Below are positions 2 to 9,445 of a stretch of 36,030 nucleotides of DNA, in pieces. Under the pieces are notes generated by a model. It was given only the letters and a program-made list of their open reading frames with translations. It searched no databases and was not told the origin of the DNA. The number at the start of each line of letters is the position of its first letter. Within the stretch, counting starts at the first letter, position 1. The position numbers and the translations under genes are program-made. Origin of the DNA: Mediterranea sp. (in: CFB group bacteria) (lineage in GTDB: Bacteria > Bacteroidota > Bacteroidia > Bacteroidales > Bacteroidaceae); assembly GCA_031258135.1 (NCBI GenBank), contig JAIRNG010000014.1:1-36030 (forward strand), read 5' to 3'.

Positions 2-778
2 GAAGGTAATGCTGTGGTCGCTATTAAGAAGGGTAGTGACATTGTCTGGTCTTATCATATCTGGGTGACGGATTATGATGGTTCCGCTACGTACGCCAAT
101 ACGTATAATACGAATAACAACGGCAAGAATTTTGTCTTTATGGATCGTAATCTGGGGGCTACTAAAGCCGGTCTTCTCACCAGTAGCGGTACCGGTGCGA
201 ACGCTGGTTTTGGTTTGTTCTACCAGTGGGGTAGGAAGGATCCATTCCCTGCCACACTTGCCCCAGGCGCTACCCAACCTGGCAGTGGTACGTTTACGGC
301 TACGGCCACTTCTTCTTCTAACGGTACAGTTGCATATACACTCAAAAATCCGAATACGTTCCTTACGGCAGGCAGTAGCAGTTCTTATGATTGGTATTAT
401 GGTTCCCGTGATAATGCGTTGTGGGGTCATTCCGGTGTGAAGACGATTTATGATCCTTGTCCTTCGGGTTGGCGGGTGCCCAAGAATTCGGGTATGTCTG
501 AGGCTACTAGTCCCTGGAAAGGTTTTACCAGCAGCAATGGTACTTGGAGTTATGGTTATAATTGGGGCACTAATACCAGGTACCCGGCCGCCGGGTCTCG
601 TGGCAACAGTAGCGGAAGTATCGGCAACGAGGGGTCCTACGGCGTCTATTGGAGTGCATCGCCCTCCAGTAGCAGCAGCAACAACGCCTCGAATCTGAAC
701 GTCTATTCCGGCTACGTCCGCGTGGATGACAGCCGCGGTCGCGCCACCGGCTTGTCTGTGCGGTGTGCCCAGGAATAG
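2..778 (+). CDS. FISUMP / Lcl-like C-type-lectin-fold surface protein, 5'-truncated by the window edge
   Basis: Frame is open to the window start (EGNAVVAIKKGSD...). Motifs FVFMDRNLGATKAG, GLFYQWGRKDPFP, IYDPCPSGWRVP, YWSAS and terminal SVRCAQE are typical of Fibrobacter/Bacteroidetes paralogous (FISUMP) domains. The GTG at 14 is not the real start. Confidence 0.85.
   Translation, partial: EGNAVVAIKKGSDIVWSYHIWVTDYDGSATYANTYNTNNNGKNFVFMDRNLGATKAGLLTSSGTGANAGFGLFYQWGRKDPFPATLAPGATQPGSGTFTATATSSSNGTVAYTLKNPNTFLTAGSSSSYDWYYGSRDNALWGHSGVKTIYDPCPSGWRVPKNSGMSEATSPWKGFTSSNGTWSYGYNWGTNTRYPAAGSRGNSSGSIGNEGSYGVYWSASPSSSSSNNASNLNVYSGYVRVDDSRGRATGLSVRCAQE
601..778 (+). other. Candidate diversity-generating retroelement (DGR) variable region at the 3' end of the FISUMP gene
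   Basis: By hand count about 33 of the last 58 codons end in C, against about 15 of the first 58. Sequence ...YWSASPSSSSSNNASNLNVYSGYVRVDDSRGRATGLSVRCAQE* has the layout of DGR C-type-lectin variable regions, with substitutions at NNC codons between invariant blocks. Confidence 0.5.
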
Positions 779-790
779 CAGGCCCGCAGG

Positions 791-806
791 GCCGTGTTTT
801 CACGGC
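791..806. other. GC-rich hairpin with TTTT tetraloop just downstream of the candidate variable region
   Basis: gccgtg-tttt-cacggc, perfect 6-bp stem, 12 nt after the stop codon. Confidence 0.6.
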
Positions 807-815
807 GCAGCCTTT

Positions 816-840
816 CCGCGGGGCATTTAAAGCCCCGCGG
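816..840. repeat. GC-rich inverted repeat
   Basis: ccgcggggc-atttaaa-gccccgcgg, perfect 9-bp stem, no T-tract following. Confidence 0.7.
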
Positions 841-917: not shown

Positions 918-1616
918 ATGAGTATCAATCAGGAATTAGAGAAGTTGTATGCTGAAAAGTGGGATAATTTATATGCTCAGTTTCAGAACATTAAAGACGA
1001 AATAAAGCCTTGTAATCCGCTAATGCTTTCCATTGAGGATGAAGACGATTATAAGACAGCCGATCTGCGGGTCATGTTTTTCGGGCGGGAAACAAGCGGC
1101 GGAAAGTGGCGGCTTTCCGACACAAGCAAGAAACATCCCGTGAAGGAAATTATGGACGATTATCTGAGATTTTCCGACAAGAAACCCAGCGCAAGTAACA
1201 GAGGAATGGGCGCAGGAATGAATCTGTTCAAGACCCTGCTCGAAGAAAAATACCCGGGCAAAAGAATCAGGTATGTCTGGAACAATATCGTAAAATCGAG
1301 CAATCTACTCGGAACGTATCCTTCGGACGAAGTCCGCAATGTTGTTTTTGAACATTTCAATGTCATCAGGCAGGAGATCAATATCCTGAAGCCCGACATT
1401 ATTTTGCTTGCCCCGGGTGTAAAAGGCTACGGCGATATTGAACGGCAGTTTGGGAAATTGGACTATCAGCCCATTCCGCAGTTCCACCCCAACCAGTTGT
1501 GCAGAACGGCATTGCCCGAATTTCCGTTTGTGAAATACGCTTTCAGAATGTATCATCTGGCAGGGCATTACAATAAGTATCACTACCTGGGCGCCATAAT
1601 AAAGTTATTAAATTGA
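918..1616 (+). CDS. Uracil-DNA-glycosylase-like fold protein
   Basis: 232-aa ORF. 'VMFFGRETSGGKW' sits at the UDG motif-I position, 'IILLAPGVKG' is a core strand, and 'IPQFHPNQL' resembles the UDG HP(S/N) motif II. Confidence 0.6.
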   Translation: MSINQELEKLYAEKWDNLYAQFQNIKDEIKPCNPLMLSIEDEDDYKTADLRVMFFGRETSGGKWRLSDTSKKHPVKEIMDDYLRFSDKKPSASNRGMGAGMNLFKTLLEEKYPGKRIRYVWNNIVKSSNLLGTYPSDEVRNVVFEHFNVIRQEINILKPDIILLAPGVKGYGDIERQFGKLDYQPIPQFHPNQLCRTALPEFPFVKYAFRMYHLAGHYNKYHYLGAIIKLLN

Positions 1617-7771: not shown

Positions 7772-9445
7772 TTATTCCTTCGTTACCCTGAACCAGTCGA
7801 CTTCAGTCCAGCCGCCGTCGTTCGTTGTGATGGCCGGGCGGGTGCAGAATGTACCGATTTTGGCTCCGATCCATTTACCTTCTTTCGCCCGGAACGGTTG
7901 GCCGAACTTCGTGAACTCCTTTCCATCGGGGCTGTAGCTAAAGTCACACATCACCAGCAGGTCGTGTCCGCCTTCGCTCGATGTGATCTTCCTGCCGTCG
8001 GCGCTGAATCGTACTTTCAGGTAGATGGTATTGTCTTTCAGGCCGGTAGATGCATTGACCTGTTCGGCGGCGCCTCTGTCCGCCTGATTGCAGACCACTT
8101 GCGACAGGACAAGGCCCTTGTCTGTGTTTTCAAGGATCAATCCGGCATAGTCCATTCCCATAACGACAAGTCCGGTACGTTCGCCGGTGTATTTCTTTGT
8201 GGGTTTGAATGTCAGCTTGATTGTTGCGGCAAAGTTATCGGATGGCGTCTTTTGCAACATCAGGTTAGTCACATCCCACAGGCTCTTGTATGCCGGCGTT
8301 ACGGGATATGAGTACAGGCGGACGTTCCCTTTGCCTCCATCAAAGAAAGCCCATTTCTCGTTAATGGCGGCATGCCATTGCCATTGGGGGGATAGCGTGA
8401 ATCCGTCGAACTCATCGCTTTCCTGAGGGGTGCAGATGGGATATGTCTTTCCTGCGTCCGGTTTTTTATACGTAAGCACAGGCTCTCCACATCCGTCGCC
8501 GTCTTTGTCGACGCCGATAACGGGCCAGTCGTTCACCCATTTCATCGGCTGGAGATGTACGATACGCCCGTAAGCGCCTACATCCTGAAAGTGCAGGAAC
8601 CAGTCTTCTCCGGTAGTTGTGTTTACCCATGCGCCCTGGTGGGGCCCATTGACCTGAGTGTTACCCTGGTGAAGAACATCTTTCGATTCGTAGGGGCCAT
8701 ATACATTTTTTGAACGAAGAACGGTTTGCCATCCTGTCGGTACTCCGCCGGCCGGTGCAAAAATATAGTAATACCCGTTACGTTTGTAGAATTTAGGGCC
8801 TTCAATCGTCTCGTGGCTTTCGTGTCCATCGAAGATGATGCGGGATTGAGTGGCGGCTTTGCTTGCATCCGGCGTTAATTCGCAAATGCTCAGGATACTT
8901 TTTAATTGCGCACGGCTTCCTGCGTAACCATGTACCAGGTATATCTTACCGTCATCGTCCCATAGGGGAGATGTGTCGATGATCCCTTTGCCCGGCTTAA
9001 CCAAGACCGGTTCCGTCCAGGGGCCTTCCGGGTATTTGGCTTTTACCATGAAAGCTCCCTGATCGGGATCGCCCCAGAAAATGTAAAACTCACCTTTATG
9101 AAAGCGGATGCAAGGCGCCCATACACGATTGCCATGTTCGGGGCGATCCGTTTCTTCTATCGGGGGGAGGGCGGGCGCGGCCGCGCCGATAATCGTCCAG
9201 TTAACCAAATCGTTGGAGTGCAGAATCTGTAACCCCGGCAGACAATTGAAACTGGATGATGTCATGTAATAATCATTATCGACGCGGCAAACATCCGGGT
9301 CGGAATAGTCTGCATAAAGAACAGGATTTTTGTATGTGCCGTTTCCCTGGTCGGCGACCCATACTTCGGATACATCATTCTTCTGTGCTGTTACGGGAAG
9401 CGCCATTAATAGGCAGAGGCTCAATGTCTGTACCGGTCTTTTCAT
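7772..9445 (-). CDS. GH43 family glycoside hydrolase (beta-xylosidase / arabinofuranosidase type)
   Basis: Signal peptide; NPVLYADYSDPDVCRVDNDYYMTSSSFNCLPGLQILHSNDLVNW; VWAPCIRFHKGEFYIFWGD; IDTSPLWDDDGKIYLVHG; ETIEGPKFYKRNGYYYIFAPAGG. Confidence 0.93.
   Translation of the reverse strand: MKRPVQTLSLCLLMALPVTAQKNDVSEVWVADQGNGTYKNPVLYADYSDPDVCRVDNDYYMTSSSFNCLPGLQILHSNDLVNWTIIGAAAPALPPIEETDRPEHGNRVWAPCIRFHKGEFYIFWGDPDQGAFMVKAKYPEGPWTEPVLVKPGKGIIDTSPLWDDDGKIYLVHGYAGSRAQLKSILSICELTPDASKAATQSRIIFDGHESHETIEGPKFYKRNGYYYIFAPAGGVPTGWQTVLRSKNVYGPYESKDVLHQGNTQVNGPHQGAWVNTTTGEDWFLHFQDVGAYGRIVHLQPMKWVNDWPVIGVDKDGDGCGEPVLTYKKPDAGKTYPICTPQESDEFDGFTLSPQWQWHAAINEKWAFFDGGKGNVRLYSYPVTPAYKSLWDVTNLMLQKTPSDNFAATIKLTFKPTKKYTGERTGLVVMGMDYAGLILENTDKGLVLSQVVCNQADRGAAEQVNASTGLKDNTIYLKVRFSADGRKITSSEGGHDLLVMCDFSYSPDGKEFTKFGQPFRAKEGKWIGAKIGTFCTRPAITTNDGGWTEVDWFRVTKE

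What the first reader, a model, noticed from the sequence alone, without database searches (positions are those of the whole stretch)
601..778. Probable DGR variable region in the C-type-lectin-like C-terminus of the FISUMP protein
Seen: the last ~58 codons switch to a strongly NNC-biased pattern (about 33/58 against about 15/58 in the first 58 codons). The NNC codons (tcc tac ggc gtc ... tcc ggc tac gtc cgc ... gac agc cgc ... cgc gcc acc ggc) are interleaved with invariant-looking blocks (tat tgg agt gca tcg; ttg tct gtg cgg tgt). Established: DGRs mutate adenines of template AAC/AAY codons, giving NNC/NNY codons in 3'-terminal variable regions of C-type-lectin-fold proteins. Inference: the template reads roughly ...YWSASPN.NNNNA.NLN.NSGNVN.NNNNNRANGLSVRC. 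No reverse transcriptase, Avd or template copy is visible in the window, so the RT would act from outside it, possibly on a remote target.
Basis: partly seen in the sequence, partly recalled or inferred. Interest (0 to 1): 0.85.

Follow-up and report, generated by a model that had tools for sequence, protein, structure and literature searches.

The report
Retroelement-diversified surface protein tail
The end of this gut-bacterium surface-protein gene carries the marks of a targeted-mutation machine (a diversity-generating retroelement) that has rewritten the tails of at least four related surface proteins in the same genome, apparently from a template stored elsewhere.

Summary
In detail: the last 58 codons hold 33 NNC codons against 43 in the other 200 (p=1e-6). 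The requested genome search gave a split result. No template repeat (TR) for this sequence is in the 82%-complete assembly, but the assembly holds at least ten FISUMP genes (window included) and three DGR-type reverse transcriptases. The four closest paralogs show the DGR signature without a template: differences sit at codon positions 1-2, position 3 is nearly frozen, and columns whose commonest base is A vary far more (29/38) than others (28/112; p=4e-8). Upstream of the variable region (VR) no such bias exists. VR skeletons are nearly identical even between genes that are very different upstream. A second genome of the genus reproduces the signature; a third termite-gut genome has one TR beside its RT and about 30 remote VRs. 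Best reading: a DGR variable region on a fimbrillin-like lipoprotein, written in trans. The likeliest enzyme is an avd-rt pair 15 nt behind alaS, with no TR beside it, kept under selection as strong as alaS; that link is inferred. DGR targets of this type and remote targets are known; the size of the family and the TR-less avd-rt are the new part.

The parts
2..778 (+). FISUMP-domain surface protein gene, 5' end missing (contig starts inside it)
   Evidence: full-length paralog on C170 has a lipobox and a Mfa_like_1 domain
602..745 (+). DGR variable region core: conserved skeleton interleaved with hypervariable NNC/NNY codons
   Evidence: codon alignment with paralogs on C67, C139, C170
746..772 (+). 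conserved 3' end of the VR, position of an IMH-like element (role inferred)
   Evidence: GTGCGGTG invariant in five paralogs
791..806 (+). short hairpin GCCGTG-TTTT-CACGGC just after the stop, position of the DGR target hairpin (role inferred)
   Evidence: shared by C97, C139, C170, C24; fold of 776-850 z=-3.5
816..840 (+). 9-bp GC-rich hairpin, terminator-like or second target hairpin
   Evidence: shared by C97, C139, partly C170 and C24; z=-4.3

Best explanation
The 3' end of this gene (core 602-745) is a DGR variable region. SHOWN: it belongs to a FISUMP gene family on at least 10 contigs; four members share a VR skeleton in which A-consensus positions are hypervariable and codon position 3 is fixed; the skeletons are far more alike than the genes that carry them; the genome encodes DGR-type RTs and an Avd elsewhere. 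INFERRED: a template repeat outside the window is transcribed and copied by a DGR RT that misreads template adenines, and the mutated cDNA replaces the VR of several family members in trans, guided by the conserved 3' end and hairpin (746-806). The protein is probably a fimbrillin-like surface lipoprotein whose C-terminal tip binds a ligand, so each round would change the binding face. The likeliest enzyme is the alaS-avd-rt operon on contig C149, which has no TR beside it; this assignment is the weakest step (about 0.55).
For: NNC bias. Window vs C67 differences at codon positions 1/2/3: upstream 3/3/8, VR core 16/14/1; window vs C139: upstream 33/31/39, VR core 14/12/3, third-position p=5e-8. 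A-consensus columns variable 29/38 vs 28/112 others, p=4e-8; upstream 5/26 vs 17/88, p=1; replicated in Mediterranea sp. Roe453_bin87 (26/34 vs 30/116, p=1.5e-7). Avd hit (NF033474 E=5e-10). RTs 40-51% identical to the C149 RT sit beside TR/VR pairs with 85-100% of mismatches at template A in same-genus genomes. In Culturomica one TR beside the RT matches about 30 remote VRs, 580/928 mismatches at template A and 49/49 in the two youngest. RT and Avd of the TR-less operon have dN/dS like alaS across three genomes. Fib_succ_major+Mfa2 lipoprotein is a published DGR target (PMC4159848).
Against: No TR for this family was found in three related assemblies of about 82, 83 and 60% completeness. The A bias rests on a consensus of four sequences, not on a template; with nine more diverged G061 sequences it is not significant (p=0.09). 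Activity today is not shown. The C-type-lectin fold could not be confirmed.
Confidence: 0.9

Rival explanations
1. Relic: a DGR wrote these VRs in the past, the TR was then lost in this lineage, and the present sequences are frozen.
For: No TR in G000, G061 or G063. The C149 RT locus has no room for one. More diverged family members (C38, C144, C113, C81, C169) have drifted at position 3.
Against: RT and Avd are under purifying selection as strong as alaS. The VR skeleton of window and C67 differs at 1 of 48 third positions against 8 of 38 upstream (p=0.009), so copying went on after the genes split.
Confidence: 0.25
2. The template and enzyme are an ordinary complete cassette (avd, TR and RT together) that happens to be missing from the assembly, and the alaS-avd-rt operon does something else.
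For: The assembly is 82% complete and breaks at FISUMP repeats. In Culturomica the TR is beside the RT and only the targets are remote. A second RT (C26) has an A-rich TR-like repeat beside it at a contig end.
Against: The C26 TR skeleton does not match the window VR (76% over 79 nt, with differences at non-A sites). A further cassette would have to be missing from all three assemblies.
Confidence: 0.35
3. No retroelement: diversifying selection plus gene conversion among paralogous adhesins made the pattern.
For: Gene families of adhesins do convert and diversify; several paralogs are in the genome.
Against: Gene conversion would homogenise variable and fixed sites alike, and selection would not spare position 3 or single out A-consensus columns. 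Related genomes with a TR show the same codon pattern with A-specific mismatches.
Confidence: 0.05

Closest known systems
Human-gut DGRs with Fib_succ_major / Mfa2 lipoprotein targets (PMC4159848); diversification of Bacteroides type V pilus tips noted in a review (PMC12632263)
   Same: FISUMP C-terminal variable region; fimbrillin-like lipoprotein N-terminus in the best paralog; Bacteroidales host
   Different: There the TR is found; here the targets are many and scattered, and no TR is found for them
Treponema denticola DGR, one TR and up to 7 targets (PMC4891356); cyanobacterial DGRs with remote variable proteins (PMC7517822; 18 TR/VR loci in Trichodesmium, PMC8867640)
   Same: Remote paralogous targets sharing one VR skeleton
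   Different: Those genomes keep a core cassette with the TR; about 30 VRs for one TR, as in Culturomica G064, is more than any count I found in the held papers (not an exhaustive survey)
Thiohalocapsa PB-PSB1 trans-acting and degenerate DGR loci (PMC10907252)
   Same: Target loci without a complete cassette, diversification best explained in trans
   Different: Each class there keeps one complete cassette; here the best RT candidate has no TR, is joined to alaS, and is conserved in three genomes
Bordetella phage BPP-1 DGR (from general knowledge)
   Same: Avd plus RT, A-directed mutagenesis, C-terminal VR, IMH and hairpin after the VR
   Different: Single cis target, TR between avd and RT

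Membership tests
DGR variable region | C-terminal VR with NNY-rich variable codons between fixed blocks | tested here: met
DGR variable region | variation directed at template adenines | tested here: inconclusive
   met on consensus A columns; cannot be tested against a real template
DGR variable region | near-identical template repeat in the genome | tested here: not met
   none in the 82%-complete assembly; absence is not final
DGR variable region | DGR-type RT and accessory gene in the genome | tested here: met
   on other contigs, not linked to the VR
DGR variable region | IMH and hairpin after the VR | tested here: inconclusive
   conserved 3' end and hairpin shared by paralogs; role not tested
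DGR variable region | C-type-lectin fold of the variable domain | tested here: inconclusive
   low-confidence model (pLDDT 56), no fold match
DGR variable region | hypervariability restricted to the VR within a population | not testable with these tools
   no reads or strains; viral-contig scans gave no answer
Complete DGR core cassette (for the C149 avd-rt) | TR adjacent to RT | tested here: not met
   alaS, avd, rt and a convergent gene are packed together; no TR within 4.9 kb on one side and 7.8 kb on the other

The most novel reading that the evidence does not exclude
In termite- and cockroach-gut Bacteroides a DGR has been taken apart and domesticated: avd-rt is fixed behind alaS, its template lies at an unlinked site, and it diversifies a genome-wide family of 10 to 16 adhesin-like proteins in trans.
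Probability: 0.4. Interest if true: 0.75.

Novelty: new variant of a known kind. Interest (0 to 1): 0.58.

Why it matters
Surveys of DGRs usually start from an RT and look for repeats a few kilobases around it. Here the targets lie on contigs of their own and the best RT candidate has no local template, so such systems would be missed. The test used here (A-consensus columns against others, frozen position 3, shared skeleton in diverged genes) finds DGR targets without a template. If the uncoupled alaS-avd-rt is confirmed, it becomes directly testable whether an RT and its template RNA work from unlinked chromosomal sites, and insect-gut Bacteroidales become a place to look for very large diversified adhesin families.

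Tried and rejected
Searches for the TR with the window VR, with an inferred window-family TR, with an inferred G061-family TR and with a skeleton pattern found VRs only. A scan of fetched loci for AAY-dense stretches found templates only in Culturomica. The C26 template was rejected as source of the window VR because its skeleton differs. Weak hits on C107 and C80 are unrelated coding sequence; the one on G061:C100 is a cassette array. A DNA search of 60 relatives found the VR in no other genome at E<=1e-5, so close-strain comparison was not possible. Viral-contig pattern scans gave no answer.

Full report
What was checked. The window is the whole of contig C97 of a 2.43-Mb, 171-contig, 82%-complete assembly. 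Frame 2-778 is open from the contig start and ends in a FISUMP domain.

Paralogs in the same genome. Searching with 590-900 found clear relatives on C139, C170, C67, C24 (3' end only), C38, C50, C144 and C113; further FISUMP genes lie on C81 and C169. In a codon alignment the window, C67, C170 and C139 share a skeleton (TAT TGG AGT GCA TCG CCC ... GCC TCG ... TCC GGC ... GTC ... GTG) and differ in the codons between, at positions 1 and 2, keeping position 3. Window vs C67: 3/3/8 differences at positions 1/2/3 upstream, 16/14/1 in the VR core. Window vs C139: 33/31/39 upstream, 14/12/3 in the VR core (third-position p=5e-8). The VR skeletons are thus younger than the genes that carry them. Copying from a common template with errors at chosen sites predicts this; gene conversion or selection alone does not.

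Adenine bias without a template. In the VR, columns whose commonest base is A vary in 29 of 38 cases, the others in 28 of 112 (p=4e-8). Upstream the figures are 5/26 and 17/88 (p=1). Four close VRs of Mediterranea sp. Roe453_bin87 (G061) give 26/34 and 30/116 (p=1.5e-7), upstream not significant. Caveat: the commonest base stands in for the template, and in a wider set of nine more diverged G061 genes the bias is weaker (p=0.09) because position 3 has drifted too (all).

Relatives. The nearest named records are metagenome-assembled genomes labelled Mediterranea sp. Roe453_bin87 and Cc175_bin25 and Tannerellaceae Roe453_bin14. G061 and G063 coincide, contig by contig, with same-genus genomes G138 (83% complete) and G133 (60%). 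That these are termite and cockroach gut samples is my reading of the isolate codes, from general knowledge.

The machinery. Three RT genes are in the assembly. C151 carries a self-contained cassette with an FGE-like target, 19 of 20 TR/VR mismatches at A. C26 carries an RT, an A-rich TR-like repeat and tandem truncated VR-like cassettes at a contig end; its skeleton is not that of the window. C149 carries an Avd gene (NF033474 E=5e-10; PF22296 E=4e-9, just under cut-off) that overlaps an RT, starts 15 nt after alaS and is convergent with an ATPase gene; no TR fits there and none was found in the 14 kb examined. The order alaS-avd-rt recurs in G063 (C53, RT 88% identical) and G061 (C55, 81%, contig end 0.4 kb after the RT). 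Between G000 and G063, dN/dS is 0.12 for RT, 0.11 for Avd and 0.11 for alaS at dS of 0.4-0.6; other pairs give 0.06-0.12 but with near-saturated dS. As positive controls, RTs of 40-51% identity in same-genus genomes do have adjacent TR/VR pairs with 85-100% of mismatches at template A; in G079 and G112 an avd precedes the TR and RT. So the detection works, and TR absence at C149 is a property of the locus.

A neighbour with the template in hand. Culturomica sp. Hm464_bin165 (G064) has one TR next to its RT and 34 further matches over its contigs. In 30 alignments 580 of 928 mismatches fall on template A, which makes up 27% of the bases compared; the two youngest VRs have 21/21 and 28/28. One template can thus feed a large remote family in a related host.

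The protein. The C170 paralog (661 aa) has a lipobox and a Mfa_like_1 domain (E=9e-41) before the FISUMP tail; C113 also has a lipobox. A Fib_succ_major plus Mfa2 lipoprotein is a published DGR target (PMC4159848), and a review reports DGR diversification of Bacteroides pilus tips (PMC12632263). The C-type-lectin fold was not confirmed (model pLDDT 56, no fold match).

Target-site features. After the VR, a conserved GTGCGGTG end, a 6-bp hairpin (791-806) and a 9-bp hairpin (816-840) are shared with C139, C170 and C24, where DGRs keep their IMH and target hairpin. Their role is inferred from position.

What is and is not new. FISUMP targets, remote targets and trans action are known (PMC4159848, PMC4891356, PMC7517822, PMC8867640, PMC10907252). 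Not found in the held papers: an avd-rt fixed behind alaS without a TR and kept under strong selection, and a family of about 30 VRs for one TR.

Verdict. DGR variable region: 0.9. Enzyme = C149 avd-rt: about 0.55. If TR loss by incompleteness were independent in the three assemblies, its absence from all would have a chance near 1%; so the TR either lies in repeats that assemblies drop, or it has been lost. Long reads would decide.

Noticed in passing
G064 (Culturomica sp. Hm464_bin165), TR at L229 / G064:C3:9351-9551: One TR next to an RT matches 34 other places in a 2.1-Mb genome; about 30 are 3' ends of FISUMP-like genes with A-biased mismatches.
   Followed up: partly
L035 (G000:C26:15740-17278), G000:C91:5634-5864, G061 contigs C22, C25, C35, C38, C43, C100, G063 contigs C34, C138: Tandem arrays of truncated VR-like cassettes (alternate spacing about 260 and 400 nt) without a gene body, often at contig ends and next to the second RT; they look like a store of silent VRs or debris of homing.
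   Followed up: partly
L034:4924-6529 (G000:C149), L172, L173: avd-rt operon directly behind alaS, with overlapping avd and rt and no TR, conserved in three genomes.
   Followed up: yes
L025:11400-11500 (G000:C139 VR): 18-nt in-frame insertion CATTGGAGAGCATCGCCC, a near tandem copy of TATTGGAGTGCATCGCCC inside the VR, as slippage during copying would give.
   Followed up: no
window 918-1616 and L028 (G000:C24:5240-5935): The gene after the FISUMP gene (no Pfam hit) has a similar gene after the FISUMP remnant on C24, so the pair seems to have been duplicated together.
   Followed up: no
L032:4750-4810 (G000:C113): A detached VR 3' remnant lies about 0.4 kb downstream of an intact FISUMP gene, after a run of short AT-rich repeats.
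   Followed up: no
window 7772-29335: The rest of the contig is largely a polysaccharide-utilisation locus: GH43, DUF4861, GH28, S9 peptidase, SusD and SusC, hybrid two-component regulator, GH92.
   Followed up: no
L024 (G000:C151): A separate complete DGR cassette with an FGE-like target, TR 8889-9004 and VR 9060-9175, 19 of 20 mismatches at A.
   Followed up: partly
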